64,000 nucleotides of DNA from Prosthecobacter vanneervenii (GTDB lineage: Bacteria > Verrucomicrobiota > Verrucomicrobiia > Verrucomicrobiales > Verrucomicrobiaceae): NCBI RefSeq assembly GCF_014203095.1, contig NZ_JACHIG010000001.1, positions 434,001 through 498,000 on the forward strand. Direction: 5' to 3'. Of the stretch, positions 1 to 17,655 are shown one piece after another; the stretch's first letter is position 1; every line of letters starts with the position of its first letter. The notes beneath the pieces are model-generated. The model was not told where the DNA came from. It did not search any database and saw only the letters and a list, made by a program, of their open reading frames with translations. A program made the position numbers and the translations under genes.

Positions 1-904
1 GAAGGTGGACGGGCTCTACGAGGAGGCGCTGCAAAACACCGACACCGTGCTGCGCGTGTGGGCCTCCAACATGACCAGCCAGCTCTCCAACCACCACGCC
101 TACGAGTATCTCGGCGGCCTGAGCATGGCGGTAACGAAGGTCACCGGCAAATCACCCGCCGCCGTCATCTCCGATGTGCGCGATCCCAGCGGGGCACGCG
201 TACGCGACTTCGAGGAGGTGCTGGCGTCCAACCTGAAGTCCGAGCTCCTTAACCGCCGCTGGCTGGAGGGGATGAAATCGCACGACTACGCCGGGGCGGG
301 GCACATCTCCGAGCTGGTGAAAAACACCTTTGGCTGGTCCGTCACACGGCGGGGTAGCATCACGCAGGAAACATGGAACGAGGTGTATGACGTGCTGGTG
401 AAGGACAAGCACAATCTCAAGCTGCCCGAGTGGTTTGAGCGCGTGTCTCCGCATGCCATGCAGGAGATCAGCGCCACGCTGATCGAGGCCGCGCGCAAGG
501 ACCTGTGGCAGGCCACGCCCGAGCAGGTGCGCACGCTGGCAGAGATCTATGCGCGCTCCGTGAATGCGCATGGCGACTCCGGTGGTCTCGTCAGCGGTGG
601 AAACACCCGCATGGCCGATTTTGTGAACGCCAAGCTCACCGCGCCGGGAGATCAGGAAGGTGCGGCGCTGGCGCAGGAGATGCGGGCCAAACTGCAGCAA
701 AGCGCCGAGCCGCCGCCCACTGCGGTGGAGAAGGTCAGTGGCACTCAGATCAGCCAGCCGGCAGCCGCAGATAAACCGCAGCCGCCGCAGCCCGAGGGCA
801 CGGTGCTGCAACCTGCATGGAATTCATTCGCTTGGTTGATCGCCGCCGCAGCTGTGCTCCTGATGGTGGCCGGCTTCTTTAAAAAGGCCGGATCCGCCTC
901 ATGA
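1..904 (+). CDS. cobN: CobN-like cobaltochelatase large subunit, C-terminal part (truncated by window edge)
   Basis: This is the C-terminal end of a CobN/magnesium-chelatase H-type protein, the large subunit that holds the corrin ring while a metal is inserted. The reading frame is open to the first base of the window, so the true start lies upstream. The family signature is the stretch with the NTDTVLRVWASNMTSQLSN block and the HAYEYLGGLS block, followed by the WFERVSPHAMQEI region. After the chelatase domain comes a Pro/Gln-rich linker (about residues 230-265 of the visible part), then one hydrophobic segment and a short basic tail, so the protein appears anchored in the membrane by its C terminus. 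Soluble CobN proteins of the aerobic B12 pathway lack this anchor. The stop overlaps the start of the ExbB-like gene (ATGA), so translation is probably coupled. Confidence 0.82.
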   Translation, partial: KVDGLYEEALQNTDTVLRVWASNMTSQLSNHHAYEYLGGLSMAVTKVTGKSPAAVISDVRDPSGARVRDFEEVLASNLKSELLNRRWLEGMKSHDYAGAGHISELVKNTFGWSVTRRGSITQETWNEVYDVLVKDKHNLKLPEWFERVSPHAMQEISATLIEAARKDLWQATPEQVRTLAEIYARSVNAHGDSGGLVSGGNTRMADFVNAKLTAPGDQEGAALAQEMRAKLQQSAEPPPTAVEKVSGTQISQPAAADKPQPPQPEGTVLQPAWNSFAWLIAAAAVLLMVAGFFKKAGSAS

Positions 905-1500
905 AGCTGCTCGAACAACTCCTTTCCCTGATCTCCGAAGCGGTGCTGCTGCCCACGCTGGCGGCCATCGTCATCCTTGTGGGCTGGAGCACCATGCTGC
1001 TGGGCGGGCTGCTGCGTGAGTGGCTGGGGCGCAGCCACACGGCCTTCATCCTGGCCCAGCTCCGCCGTGCGCATGTGGAGGGCGGGGATCAGGTGCGGCT
1101 GCTGCAAATTCTAAGTACTGCCACCAGCGGCCTCCCGGCACGGCTGCACCAGTTGCTGGCCCAGTGGGGCGGAGCAGGGGAGCTGGCGCATTGCCTGGTG
1201 GATCTGGAGATCGAGACTGCCACTGCGCTTTCCCGCCTGACGTGGATGACGCGCATCGCCCCCATGCTCGGGCTCATGGGCACGCTCATTCCGCTGGGGC
1301 CTGCGCTCACCGGTTTGGCCTCGGGAGATCTGGCCACGCTTTCCAGCAATCTCGTGGTGGCCTTCACCGCCACGGTGGTGGGTGTGCTGCTGGGCTGCTG
1401 CTCCTATACGATGAACCTCGTGCGGAAGAACTGGTATCAGAGCGATCTCAGCACGCTGGAGCATCTCTTCATCAACGCCAACCGTCCCGCCATGCCATGA
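901..1500 (+). CDS. MotA/TolQ/ExbB-family proton channel protein
   Basis: This 199-residue protein has three predicted membrane segments: one near residues 16-37, and a pair near 115-135 and 150-172 separated by a short loop. That is the layout of ExbB/TolQ proteins. The pair of helices carries the family-like pattern RIAPMLGLMGTLIPLGPAL, followed by a small-residue helix rich in Thr/Val/Gly. Such proteins form a pentameric channel that couples proton flow to work on a partner protein. Its start overlaps the end of the cobN-like gene and its stop overlaps the DUF2149 start, so the three are almost certainly one translational unit. The inferred role is to energise the membrane-anchored CobN-like protein or metal/corrinoid movement. 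No ExbD/TolR protein is seen, but the small downstream protein has a similar single-helix topology. Confidence 0.8.
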   Translation: MKLLEQLLSLISEAVLLPTLAAIVILVGWSTMLLGGLLREWLGRSHTAFILAQLRRAHVEGGDQVRLLQILSTATSGLPARLHQLLAQWGGAGELAHCLVDLEIETATALSRLTWMTRIAPMLGLMGTLIPLGPALTGLASGDLATLSSNLVVAFTATVVGVLLGCCSYTMNLVRKNWYQSDLSTLEHLFINANRPAMP

Positions 1501-1814
1501 AAAAGCGCCTTTGGGACGACTCCGAAGGTGACGATCCCGCCACAGGACTGATCAATCTCTTCGATGTCTGGATTGCCTTTGCCGCAGCCTTGCTGCTCGC
1601 AGTGGTGAGCTATTTCAACCTCCCCAAACCGGCTGCCGCTGCTGATGCACAGGCTGACAAATCCCCCACGGCAGAAGCTATCGACGCCGCCCGCATGAAG
1701 GTGGAGCGCTTTCAGGAAAGCACCGCCAGCAAGAGCGGCGAGGGCGAGCGCCTGGGCACAGCCTACCGCCTGAAGTCCGGCGAAATCATCTACGTGCGCG
1801 ACAAGCAGAAGTAG
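1497..1814 (+). CDS. DUF2149 domain protein (ExbD/TolR-like topology)
   Basis: This small protein of 105 residues starts with MKKRLWDDSEGDDPATGLIN, followed by a single hydrophobic helix (about residues 22-42) and a hydrophilic, Ala/Lys-rich periplasmic tail. The N-terminal pattern with acidic residues just before the helix (DPATGLINLFDVW) is characteristic of DUF2149 proteins, which recur next to CobN-like and ExbB-like genes. The start is chosen because its ATG overlaps the preceding stop (ATGA) and gives the conserved N terminus. One helix plus a periplasmic tail resembles ExbD/TolR, the usual partner of ExbB/TolQ, so it may fill that slot in the complex. This role is an inference from topology and neighbourhood. 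Confidence 0.78.
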   Translation: MKKRLWDDSEGDDPATGLINLFDVWIAFAAALLLAVVSYFNLPKPAAAADAQADKSPTAEAIDAARMKVERFQESTASKSGEGERLGTAYRLKSGEIIYVRDKQK

Positions 1815-13707: not shown

Positions 13708-15204
<1,497 letters not shown>

Positions 15205-16083
15205 TTATTCGAGAGCCATCTTGGCGGTGGTGATTTCGAGGAGTTCGTTGGTGATCGCGGCCTGGCGGAGCTTGTTGTACTCAAGGCTGAGGTCCTTGAT
15301 CATCTGCTTGGCGTTGTCGGTGGCGTTCTTCATAGCCACCATTCGGCTGGAGTGCTCGGAGGCGCGGGATTCGAGCACCATCTGATACACGGTGTCGTTC
15401 ACATACTGCGGGAGCACGGTTTCAAACACAACCTGGGCACTCGGCTCAAATTTGTATTCGAGTGAAGGGCCCGCAGGAGCGGAGGTGTCATGGCCAAAGT
15501 CACGCTTGCCACCCAGGGTCACCGGGTTCACCGGCAAAAGCTGCTCCACGGAGGGAACGACGGTGACGGTGTTGATGAAGTTGTTGAAGACGACCAGCAC
15601 CTTCTTGTATTCGCCGGTGCGATATTTTTCCTGGAGGAAGCGGCTAACGGCGCGCACTTCAGGGAACTTGGCAGGGTCCTTGATCGGGAAGTCAGCCAGC
15701 AGGGTGCGGCGCAGACGGTTGATGGCTTGGACGGCTTTTTTGCCGATGGTGACGTATTCGACTTCGCCTTCGATCTGCGTGGTGAGGAGCTTCTTGAACA
15801 GGTTGGTGTTCAAGGCGCCGCAGAGGCCTTTGTCGGAGGCGATGAGCAGGACGAGGGTTTTGTCCCCCTTGCCAGCGGAGAAGAAGGGATGGATGCCTTC
15901 TTCAGCGTGCTCCTTGAGATTCACGAGAATCTTGTTGAGCATCTCGGCGTAGGCGCGGCCGTTGCTGGCCTGATCCTGCGCCTTTTTCATCTTCGCGGCC
16001 GCGACGAGCTGCATGGCCTTGGTGATCTGGGCCGTGTTTTTGACCGATTTGATACGGCGTCTGATGTCGCGGGTGGAGGGCAT
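15205..16083 (-). CDS. atpG: ATP synthase gamma subunit
   Basis: The 292-residue gamma subunit forms the rotating central stalk of F1. The N-terminal helix starts MPSTRDIRRRIKSVKNTAQITKAM, of which RRIKSVKNTAQITKAM is the family signature. The central Rossmann-like domain contains LIASDKGLCGALN. The C-terminal helix has the MKNATDNAKQMIKDLSLEYN signature and ends in EITTAKMALE. The order of signatures and the length agree with bacterial AtpG. A loop around residues 200-225 (GGKRDFGHDTSAPAGPS) is somewhat longer and richer in Gly/Pro than in the E. coli protein. Confidence 0.97.
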   Translation of the reverse strand: MPSTRDIRRRIKSVKNTAQITKAMQLVAAAKMKKAQDQASNGRAYAEMLNKILVNLKEHAEEGIHPFFSAGKGDKTLVLLIASDKGLCGALNTNLFKKLLTTQIEGEVEYVTIGKKAVQAINRLRRTLLADFPIKDPAKFPEVRAVSRFLQEKYRTGEYKKVLVVFNNFINTVTVVPSVEQLLPVNPVTLGGKRDFGHDTSAPAGPSLEYKFEPSAQVVFETVLPQYVNDTVYQMVLESRASEHSSRMVAMKNATDNAKQMIKDLSLEYNKLRQAAITNELLEITTAKMALE

Positions 16084-16125
16084 CTTTTAAAGGATGAAGG
16101 ATGAAAAACTCTGAACTAAAACAAC

Positions 16126-17655
16126 TTACTTCCAAGCGGTCTTGAAGTCGTCGAGGGCGGACTTGAGGCCGGCTTCGACGTTGTCGAGGGTCTTCTCGTT
16201 GGCCAGCTGGTCCATGAGCTCGGCCTTGCGGGTGGTGAGGTATTCTTCCAGTTTGGTCTGGAATTCCTTCACGCGGTCCACGGAGACGGAGTCAAAGTAG
16301 CCCTTCTGCATGGCGTAGAGAGTGCTGACCATGATGGGCAGGCTCTTGGGCTGATACTGCTGCTGCTTGAAGAGTTCCACGATGCGCGCACCGCGGTCCA
16401 GCTTGGCCTTCGTGCCAGCGTCCAGGTCGGAACCGAACTGGGCGAAAGCGGCGAGTTCGCGGAACTGGGCGAGGTCGAGCTTCGTGGTGCCGGACACCTT
16501 CTTGATGGCCTTCGTCTGAGCGGCGGAACCCACACGGGACACGGAGAGACCCACGGAGATGGCGGGACGGATGCCCTGATAGAAGAGGTCGGTTTCGAGG
16601 AAGATCTGACCGTCGGTGATGGAGATCACGTTCGTCGGGATGTAGGCGGACACGTCGCCAGCCTGGGTCTCGATGATCGGCAGAGCGGTCATGGAGCCAC
16701 CACCGTAGTTTTCGCTGACGCGGCAGGAGCGCTCAAGCAGACGGGAGTGGAGATAGAACACGTCGCCCGGATAAGCTTCACGGCCGGAAGGGCGCTTCAG
16801 GATGAGGGACACCTGACGGTAAGCCACAGCCTGCTTGGAAAGGTCATCATAGACGATGAGGACGTCCATGCCCTGATCCATGAACCACTCACCGATGGCA
16901 GCACCGGCGTAGGGGGCGAGATACTGGTTCACCGCGGAGTCAGAGGCGGAAGCGCTGACGATGGTGGTGTATTCCATGGCACCGGCGTCTTCGAGGGTCT
17001 TGATGACGCGGGCGATGTTGGACTGCTTCTGGCCGATGGCGACGTAGATGCAGTAGAGGGGCTTGTGGCCCTTCAGCTTGCCCTGTTCGGCAGCCTTGTT
17101 CTGCTGGGCCTGGGAGATGATGGCGTCAACGGCGATGGTGGTCTTGCCGGTGGAGCGGTCACCGATGATCAGTTCGCGCTGACCACGACCGATCGGGATC
17201 ATGGCGTCGATGCTCATGATGCCGGTCTGCACGGGGACGGACACGGACTTACGGGCAATGATGCCAGGGGCGAGCTTTTCGACGGGATACTGGGTTGCAC
17301 CCTTCACTTCGCCTTTGCCGTCGATGGCCTGACCGAGCGCGTTCACCACGCGGCCCAGGAGGCTCTTGCCGACCGGCACTGAGAGGAGGCGGCCAGTGGT
17401 CTTGACTTCGTCGCCAGCCTTGATGTTTTCGCCGGAGCCGAGGAGCACGCAGCCGACTTCGGTTTCTTCGAGGTTCAGAGCGAGACCGTACACACCGCCG
17501 GGGAACTCGATCATTTCGTTGAGCATCACATCGCTCAAGCCTTCAATCTTGGCTGCGCCGTCACCGATTTCACGGACGATGCCCACATTGGACTTCGTGA
17601 CGGCGGTCTTGAGGCCGGCGATTTGGGATTCGATCTCCTGGAGGATGTTGCTCAT
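16126..17655 (-). CDS. atpA: ATP synthase alpha subunit
   Basis: The 509-residue alpha subunit alternates with beta in the F1 hexamer and carries the non-catalytic nucleotide sites. The P-loop GDRSTGKT lies at residues 165-172, and the family signature around the arginine finger is present ([18 protein letters not shown]). Length and domain order are typical. The N-terminal helix ([15 protein letters not shown]) is the part that binds the delta subunit. It is preceded by atpH and followed by atpG as in most bacteria. The leader just before the ATG is A/T-rich without a Shine-Dalgarno match. Confidence 0.98.

What the first reader, a model, noticed from the sequence alone, without database searches (positions are those of the whole stretch)
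1..1814. CobN-like chelatase coupled to its own ExbB-like motor
The three genes overlap by ATGA junctions and encode a membrane-anchored CobN-like protein, an ExbB/TolQ-type channel and a one-helix DUF2149 protein. The sequence shows the fusion-like coupling and the added C-terminal membrane helix on CobN. Known: ExbB/TolQ channels power partners by proton flow, and CobN-type ATP use normally involves CobS/CobT. Inference: this is a proton-driven corrinoid or metal handling machine at the membrane, with DUF2149 in the ExbD place, and not a classic soluble cobaltochelatase.
Basis: partly seen in the sequence, partly recalled or inferred. Interest (0 to 1): 0.62.

Follow-up and report, generated by a model that had tools for sequence, protein, structure and literature searches.

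The report
Hmu-type membrane chelatase with proton motor
This is a variant of a known bacterial operon that probably takes iron out of heme at the cell membrane, and comparison with archaea suggests that its small ion-driven motor works on the chelatase itself rather than on the outer-membrane receptor, as is usually assumed.

Summary
Window 1-1814 holds the end of a CobN-like gene, an ExbB-like gene and a DUF2149 gene with ATGA overlaps. Upstream, outside the window, lie the rest of the CobN gene (exported; C-terminal membrane helix) and a TonB receptor closest to heme receptors. The genome shows no CobS, no corrin enzyme CbiC/CobH and no second CobN, so this is not B12 synthesis.

The set is a known kind: hmuR-S-U-V of the Bacteroidota hmu operon, whose HmuS strips iron from heme. 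The window protein is a divergent relative: it keeps HmuS's two active-site histidines and His254, but lacks the methionine-rich insertion, Met79 and two pocket residues.

The new part concerns the motor. Published models tie HmuU/HmuV to TonB and the receptor. But ExbB-DUF2149-CobN recurs in archaea, which have no outer membrane: in 40 loci ExbB 40, CobN 31, receptor 0. Both-ended hydrophobic segments mark 104 of 108 motor-adjacent CobNs and 0 of 33 others. Membrane CobNs group together, and ExbB tracks CobN, not the receptor, in evolutionary distance.

I favour a proton-driven motor acting on an extracytoplasmic heme de-chelatase. Coupling, substrate and proton flow are inferred, not shown.

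The parts
2..904 (+). C-terminal 300 aa of the CobN-like (HmuS-like) protein; the rest lies upstream (ORF G000:C1:430837-434904, likely ATG at 430960)
   Evidence: best solved structure HmuS 9d26, E 9.1e-148
95..106 (+). Codons of His1087 to Glu1090 (ORF numbering); these two align with HmuS His1209 (axial ligand) and Glu1212, in motif LSNHHAYEYLGG
827..880 (+). C-terminal hydrophobic helix of the CobN-like protein (FAWLIAAAAVLLMVAGFF)
901..1500 (+). ExbB-like protein, 199 aa (HmuU-type); T128 (1282-1284) and T158 (1372-1374) in the conserved helices
   Evidence: T128 142 of 142 rows, T158 141 of 142
1497..1814 (+). DUF2149 protein, 105 aa (HmuV-type): one membrane helix, long linker, short C-terminal hairpin in a low-confidence model
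1563..1565 (+). Asp23 of DUF2149, at the start of the membrane helix (NLFD)
   Evidence: conserved in 142 of 142 rows

Best explanation
A four-gene Hmu-type system, hmuR-hmuS-hmuU-hmuV without hmuY and hmuT. The TonB receptor brings a metal tetrapyrrole, most likely heme, into the periplasm. The exported CobN-like protein, anchored by its C-terminal helix, binds it between His592 and His1087 and pulls the metal out; ferrous iron would then enter by a separate transporter. ExbB and DUF2149 form a small ion-driven motor of the ExbBD/MotAB type. Protons would pass at Asp23 of DUF2149 and Thr128/Thr158 of ExbB, and the movement would be passed to the CobN-like protein to drive loading, metal release or product ejection, taking the place of the ATPases CobST/ChlID. 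Shown: gene order, families, hydrophobic anchors, conserved residues, co-occurrence, grouping in trees, no hit for CobS and CbiC. Inferred: substrate heme, direction (de-chelation), ion flow, contact of motor with CobN, the iron transporter (not searched).
For: Closest solved structure is the HmuS heme de-chelatase, ahead of ChlH and CobN. Axial His538, His1209, Glu1212 and heme-site His254 are kept in 7 of 7 genus members. The receptor scores best with heme receptor models (TIGR01785, 206 bits, against 123 for B12; below its cut-off of 317) and PhuR. Motor-CobN link: in 40 archaeal DUF2149 loci ExbB 40, CobN within 3 kb 31, receptor 0; CobN in 87 of 91 archaeal DUF2149 genomes against 88 of 203 others. 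Motor-adjacent complete CobNs have N- and C-terminal hydrophobic segments in 104 of 108; 13 hand-picked others 0; 20 more, every third listed hit from archaeal genomes without DUF2149, 0 (none has even the C-terminal one). Membrane CobNs are one side of a branch (SH-aLRT 100). Distance matrices in 55 loci: ExbB-CobN given receptor 0.84, ExbB-receptor given CobN -0.02. The genome has 11 ExbD and 12 ExbB-family hits, one of the latter this gene. Purified HmuS stalls after 1-2 turnovers (PMC12583661, section read), as expected if a partner is missing; the authors name other possible causes.
Against: Truncated HmuS without its membrane helices or HmuU/V still makes some PPIX with NADH, so the motor is not needed for one round of chemistry. 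Some archaeal motor pairs have no CobN beside them (9 of 40, of which only L218 and L237 stop at a contig end on that side; 3 of the 4 archaeal loci). L233 and L235 sit next to another secreted protein. In 5 of 6 own-phylum loci without CobN beside the pair, CobN lies on another contig. DUF2149 is not significantly similar to ExbD. Met79, the methionine-rich insertion, Gln1198 and Trp1202 of HmuS are missing, so heme is unsure. Most archaeal CobNs have another active site (Asp-Asp/Gln in place of His/Glu), so the substrate differs within the family. Distance correlations could be inflated because CobN is the longest protein and tracks the species tree best.
Confidence: 0.58

Rival explanations
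1. ExbB-DUF2149 is a dedicated ExbBD that powers TonB and the upstream receptor (the published model for HmuU/HmuV); the CobN-like protein works without a motor.
For: Mesle et al. 2023 state that HmuU/HmuV resemble ExbB/ExbD and, with a TonB from elsewhere, drive HmuR (PMC10100974, passages); Nath et al. draw the same (passage). A receptor is immediately upstream in the window genus, 7 of 7.
Against: The pair is conserved with CobN in archaea, which have no outer membrane (0 of 40 loci with a receptor). DUF2149 shows no ExbD-type periplasmic domain in a low-confidence model. The genome has 11 ExbD hits. The ExbB-receptor correlation vanishes given CobN.
Confidence: 0.22
2. Same machine, other cargo or direction: the window CobN-like protein removes or inserts another metal in another tetrapyrrole (cobamide, zinc or nickel porphyrin).
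For: Met79, the Met-rich insertion, Gln1198 and Trp1202 are changed; the clade is separate from HmuS; the receptor misses the heme cut-off and also matches B12 models; most archaeal relatives carry an Asp-Asp/Gln site, and one (L113) lies between genes that read like CbiM/Q/O cobalt transporters (by eye).
Against: His538, His1209, Glu1212 and His254 of HmuS are all kept; best receptor models are heme; a tRNA is the only Rfam hit at gathering score in 17.5 kb, so no B12 riboswitch.
Confidence: 0.25
3. Classic soluble cobaltochelatase subunit for B12 synthesis.
For: Pfam and NCBIfam name it CobN (below all the NCBIfam cut-offs listed).
Against: Signal-peptide-like start and C-terminal helix; no CobS, no CbiC/CobH hit in the genome; groups with membrane CobNs, not with the 13 soluble ones.
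Confidence: 0.02

Closest known systems
hmuYRSTUV operon of Bacteroidota; HmuS heme de-chelatase (PDB 9d26; Bacteroides thetaiotaomicron, Porphyromonas gingivalis; BtuS1/2 of B. fragilis)
   Same: Receptor, exported CobN-like protein with C-terminal helix, ExbB-like HmuU, DUF2149 HmuV; axial His538/His1209, Glu1212 and His254 kept
   Different: No HmuY and no HmuT gene in the operon; no Met-rich insertion (109 aa with 3 Met against median 239 aa with 18 Met in 53 Bacteroidota, range 114-367 aa and 2-30 Met); Met79 to Leu, Gln1198 to Ala, Trp1202 to Thr; separate clade
Archaeal DUF2162-ExbB-DUF2149-CobN operon (methanogens, ANME-1)
   Same: Same motor pair next to a membrane-anchored CobN on the same side of the tree
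   Different: No receptor; extra DUF2162 membrane protein in 35 of 40; active site mostly Asp-Asp/Gln; complete motor-adjacent CobNs 1284-2484 aa
CobN-CobS-CobT cobaltochelatase and ChlH-ChlI-ChlD magnesium chelatase
   Same: CobN/ChlH family and the superfamily His of HxGTHG
   Different: Those are cytoplasmic and ATP-driven (recalled); here exported, no CobS hit in the genome
ExbB-ExbD / TolQ-TolR / MotA-MotB
   Same: ExbB-family helices with two conserved threonines; one-helix partner with a TM Asp (residue roles in E. coli recalled)
   Different: DUF2149 tail has no ExbD-like domain in the model; no significant profile match; these ExbBs stand apart from 5 ordinary ExbBs of the same genome (long branches)

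Membership tests
HmuS heme de-chelatase (as defined in PMC12583661) | His538 in HFG(T/A)HG and His1209/Glu1212 in LSLDHxxEFMGG | tested here: met
   His592, His1087, Glu1090; motifs HWGTHG and LSNHHAYEYLGG, residues kept but flanks differ
HmuS heme de-chelatase (as defined in PMC12583661) | Methionine-rich insertion in domain IV | tested here: not met
   109 aa with 3 Met; 53 Bacteroidota median 239 aa with 18 Met
HmuS heme de-chelatase (as defined in PMC12583661) | Site-1 heme ligands Met79 and His254 | tested here: not met
   His254 kept 7 of 7; Met79 is Leu (6) or Val (1); also only 43 of 53 Bacteroidota rows have Met there (weak alignment in this region)
HmuS heme de-chelatase (as defined in PMC12583661) | Complete six-gene hmuYRSTUV operon | tested here: not met
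   R, S, U, V only; no gene between CobN and ExbB, no HmuT hit in 7 genus loci; HmuY not seen among the upstream ORFs (by eye). Pattern 011011 is in print for 140 species
HmuS heme de-chelatase (as defined in PMC12583661) | Removes iron from heme | not testable with these tools
   Needs the protein
CobN of cobaltochelatase CobNST | CobS/CobT and the corrin pathway in the genome | tested here: not met
   TIGR01650 none, PF02570 none; CobT not searched
ExbB-ExbD type motor | ExbB-family channel subunit | tested here: met
   PF01618 E 5.3e-9, over cut-off
ExbB-ExbD type motor | ExbD-family partner | tested here: not met
   hhalign probability 0.6%, E 0.1, Asp on Asp; no ExbD domain in the model, mean pLDDT 65.8
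ExbB-ExbD type motor | Ion flow drives the partner | not testable with these tools
   Bench only
DUF2149 (PF09919) | Pfam gathering score | tested here: met
   64.6 bits against 27.1

The most novel reading that the evidence does not exclude
ExbB-DUF2149 is a dedicated ion-driven motor for exported CobN-type chelatases, shared by bacteria and archaea and not a TonB accessory. It replaces the ATPases of CobN/ChlH, serves different tetrapyrroles in different clades (heme, corrin- or F430-like, unknown), and in some archaea may also serve other surface proteins such as secreted CbiX-type chelatases. It would explain why purified HmuS stalls after one or two turnovers.
Probability: 0.5. Interest if true: 0.78.

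Novelty: new variant of a known kind. Interest (0 to 1): 0.55.

Why it matters
How HmuS-type enzymes are powered is open: the published in vitro reaction stops after 1-2 turnovers, and HmuU/HmuV are assigned to TonB. The archaeal operons, where no TonB system exists, make the alternative directly testable: that proton flow drives metal removal at the membrane. If true, it adds a new kind of work to the ExbB/MotA motor family (driving an enzyme) and gives a role to a large set of archaeal 'CobN' genes of unknown function.

Tried and rejected
B12 synthesis: rejected (no CobS, CbiC/CobH hit). B12 riboswitch control: none in 17.5 kb at gathering score. Fur box: the 19-base E. coli consensus (recalled) with up to 3 mismatches gave 0 matches in L002; a weak test in this phylum. 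Promoter/terminator scans: no excess over shuffles. Gene fusion of motor parts: none among the ORFs scanned. HmuT as a DUF2162 relative: probability 71%, E 3.8e-5 on one comparison of two membrane families, left open. A fold search with the DUF2149 model was not run because its confidence is too low. A complex prediction was not possible (single chains only). L241's soluble CobN near a motor pair groups with the soluble proteins and was treated as a chance neighbour, though it stays in the count of 108.

Limits. The first soluble set of 13 was hand-picked from high-scoring CobN hits with frames of about 1160-1350 aa, so it was likely to be soluble; the second control of 20 took every third hit, in listing order, of genomes without DUF2149, but that list is cut at the best hits and holds archaea only; 3 of these 20 have an N-terminal segment over 1.5. 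The trees hold 71 of 121 aligned CobNs (near-copies and L234 left out by me) and 44; ChlH is not in them, and the 20 are not either. The 40 archaeal loci are 40 of 130 listed hits, from 37 genomes, chosen by me mostly from the higher scores on long contigs. Membrane segments were scored by hydropathy alone (threshold 1.5). The receptor HMM is lax, so its bacterial count (60 of 75) is an upper bound. The 142 ExbB and DUF2149 rows include a few from stretches fetched twice. L083 was dropped from counts as the same record as L053.
Full report
What is there. Window 1-1814 holds three genes on the + strand: the last 300 codons of a CobN-like gene (2-904), an ExbB-like gene (901-1500) and a DUF2149 gene (1497-1814), each pair overlapping by ATGA. 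Pfam assigns CobN-Mg_chel, MotA_ExbB and DUF2149, all over the curated cut-offs. The window is G000:C1:434001-498000. The stretch upstream (L002) shows the whole CobN ORF of 1355 aa. Its likely start is the Met at residue 42, followed by a signal-peptide-like segment, and it has a C-terminal hydrophobic helix. Right before it lies a TonB-dependent receptor (L002:9504-11705). No cobS/cobT is seen there. The source is anonymous.

Not B12 synthesis. The genome (97% complete) has one CobN, no CobS by TIGR01650 and no precorrin-8X mutase by PF02570. CobT was not searched. There are 11 ExbD hits and 12 ExbB-family hits including this one, so ordinary motors of this type exist besides it. DUF2149 occurs once.

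What it resembles. By sequence the closest solved structure is HmuS, the heme de-chelatase of Bacteroides thetaiotaomicron (9d26, E 9.1e-148), then ChlH and CobN. In print, hmuYRSTUV encodes a hemophore-like protein, a TonB receptor, the CobN-like HmuS, a membrane protein HmuT, an ExbB-family HmuU and, in a transcriptome paper, a DUF2149 protein at HmuV (PMC10434189, passages; PMC13227078, passages). HmuS of B. thetaiotaomicron has predicted membrane helices at both ends and turns heme into PPIX and Fe(II) with NADH (PMC12583661: abstract, introduction, the sections on structure, insertion, body and turnover, part 1 of the discussion, and passages). B. fragilis BtuS1/2 and FeoAB point to periplasmic iron removal (PMC6460266, passages). 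So the trio as such is known. Operons with R, S, U and V but without Y and T (pattern 011011) were tabulated for 140 species (PMC10100974, one section and passages).

How the window protein differs from HmuS. In 7 of 7 genus members the axial pair His538/His1209, Glu1212 and His254 are kept; Met79 is Leu or Val, Gln1198 is Ala, Trp1202 is Thr and Asp1208 is His. The methionine-rich insertion is absent: 109 aa with 3 Met in that stretch, against a median of 239 aa with 18 Met in 53 Bacteroidota (range 114-367 aa, 2-30 Met, so a few of those lack it too) and 136 aa with 2 Met in 13 soluble CobNs. In trees of 71 and 44 CobNs the window genus groups with Planctomycetota, same-phylum and Desulfobacterales proteins, a clade beside HmuS. 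By the published definition it fails three HmuS features and is a relative, not a strict member. The receptor scores best with heme receptor models but below their cut-offs, with PhuR first and BtuB second among solved structures. Heme is the best guess for cargo, not a result.

Distribution. In the genus 7 of 35 genomes (own included) hold the CobN, 64-88% identical in the other six, and none of 21 further genomes of the order; all seven have receptor-CobN-ExbB-DUF2149. In the phylum 39 of 387 genomes have DUF2149 and 46 CobN; 38 have both, and 8 of the 348 without DUF2149 have CobN (Fisher p 1.6e-43; related genomes are not independent). In 20 loci taken from that phylum ExbB was next to DUF2149 in 19 and CobN within 3 kb in 14. 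Of the six without, five genomes (G009, G025, G089, G129, G314) have CobN on another contig and one (G086, a partial DUF2149 hit) has none. Leaving out L083, which repeats L053, 75 bacterial loci have ExbB in 75 and CobN within 3 kb in 70; 4 archaeal loci have ExbB in 4 and CobN in 1.

Archaea. DUF2149 is in 91 of 294 genomes of the phylum of an ANME-1 archaeon, and in Methanosarcina acetivorans among the named controls. Of 40 loci fetched, ExbB is adjacent in 40, a DUF2162 membrane protein within 3 kb in 35, CobN within 3 kb in 31 and a TonB receptor in none. Of the nine without CobN, two (L218, L237) stop at a contig end on the side where CobN would lie, and L226 has only a 77 aa CobN fragment. 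CobN is in 87 of 91 genomes with DUF2149 and 88 of 203 without. Archaea of this kind have no outer membrane (established knowledge), so this pair cannot be there for a TonB receptor. Two of these genomes were seen with both kinds of CobN: G577 (membrane, L227; soluble, L275) and G596 (L207; L277).

Membrane anchoring goes with the motor. Of 108 complete CobNs with ExbB within 3 kb and DUF2149 within 3.5 kb, 104 have hydrophobic segments (mean over 1.5) at both ends; of 13 hand-picked others, none. A less selected control took every third listed CobN hit of archaeal genomes without DUF2149: of 20, none has both segments, none has the C-terminal one, 3 have an N-terminal one, and no ExbB or DUF2149 was found in the fetched stretches. 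The four exceptions among the 108 are L105 (N-terminal 1.44), L113 (N-terminal 0.78), L234 (no C-terminal) and L241 (neither). L241 falls among the soluble proteins in the tree. The other membrane CobNs are one side of a branch with SH-aLRT 100 under LG+G4 (71 rows) and under the mixture model (44 rows); the root is not inferred. Active sites differ among the groups: His/Glu in HmuS and the window clade, mostly Asp-Asp/Gln in archaea (25 of 32 Asp at the His1209 place), and Lys-Tyr/Tyr in L054-L056. So one machine seems to serve several tetrapyrroles (inference).

The motor. Over 142 ExbB and 142 DUF2149 rows, ExbB Thr128 (142), Thr158 (141), Pro121, Gly124, Gly142 and Gly161 (142 each), and DUF2149 Asn20, Phe22 and Asp23 (142 each), are conserved. 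The two threonines and the Asp sit where E. coli ExbB Thr148/Thr181 and ExbD Asp25 sit (recalled; E. coli was not aligned here). DUF2149 is predicted as one helix (14-41), a low-confidence linker and a hairpin (87-101), mean pLDDT 65.8. A profile comparison with six ExbDs of the same genome places Asp on Asp but is not significant. The ExbBs of these operons stand apart from five ordinary ExbBs of the same genome, with two other low-scoring ExbBs on the ordinary side (long branches).

Motor for receptor or for chelatase? Published models give HmuU/HmuV to TonB and HmuR. Against this stand the archaeal operons, the grouping of membrane CobNs and, in 55 bacterial loci with all four genes, the distance correlations: ExbB-CobN 0.95, ExbB-receptor 0.82; partial 0.84 (bootstrap 0.77-0.88) against -0.02 (-0.13 to 0.07). 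In L058 genes that look like an ordinary ExbB/TolQ cluster lie beside the operon (by eye, and a weak ExbB hit). For the published view stands the adjacent receptor in bacteria. Recombinant HmuS without helices or motor makes PPIX, but only 1-2 turnovers: the chemistry does not need the motor, sustained turnover may.

Print. Among listings and the passages I opened, no paper proposes the coupling: searches 'CobN ExbB archaea' (10 papers), 'HmuV HmuU ExbD CobN' (10 of 31 listed), 'cobN-like methanogen surface', 'BtuS ExbB', 'HmuS proton motive force chelatase', 'ExbB archaea proton channel chelatase', 'DUF2149', 'DUF2162' (none). Most listed papers were not opened, and only open-licence PMC papers were searched. 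Nath et al. [quoted passage not shown] fragilis (PMC10846266, passages). The P. gingivalis study says it cannot exclude that HmuT, HmuU and HmuV affect HmuS activity (PMC13227078, passages), which is the nearest to the present idea.

Verdict. The operon is a new variant of a known kind. The fresh element is the evidence that ExbB-DUF2149 belongs to the chelatase. Confidence: Hmu-type extracytoplasmic chelatase system about 0.85; motor acts on CobN about 0.65; heme as cargo about 0.55. The mended counts (two, not three, contig ends; one more control) did not change these odds.

Noticed in passing
L131:3553-4509 (also hits in L136, L162): Bacteroides loci carry a CbiK-type (class II) chelatase gene with a signal-peptide-like start near the CobN-ExbB-DUF2149 set (CbiK E 3.3e-77 in L131; neighbours), directly before CobN in L131; a second chelatase class in the same locus.
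   Followed up: partly
L108:10580-12418: Methanosarcinales contig: a 612 aa protein with three CbiX stretches and an FmdE domain lies just after an ExbB-DUF2149 pair with no CobN found in the locus.
   Followed up: partly
L113:1078-3909 and 14002-16534; L234:12623-16030: Genes that read like cobalt/nickel CbiM/CbiQ/CbiO transporters (by eye in L113; L234 by similarity to them) lie near the archaeal DUF2162-ExbB-DUF2149-CobN set, hinting at cobalt or nickel tetrapyrrole salvage.
   Followed up: no
L233:5566-9363; L235:8956-12762: An ExbB-DUF2149 pair beside a secreted protein of about 870 aa, alike in both, instead of CobN, in two archaeal genomes; the motor may have other partners.
   Followed up: no
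L202-L241: DUF2162, a predicted membrane transporter, lies within 3 kb of DUF2149 in 35 of 40 archaeal loci; weak profile similarity to Bacteroidota HmuT (E 3.8e-5, one comparison).
   Followed up: partly
L054-L056, L124: A sister group of the window CobN lacks the axial His/Glu (motif NKYTWYIDGS or NKFSWWVEGM); substrate unknown.
   Followed up: no
window:1942-2838: Gene after the operon encodes a Gln/Pro/Gly-rich protein with a hydrophobic start, role unknown, followed by an ORF that reads like threonyl-tRNA synthetase (both by eye).
   Followed up: no
L203, L208, L215, L217, L220, L222, L225: A second CobN follows the first in several archaeal loci, cut by the end of the stretch I fetched.
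   Followed up: no
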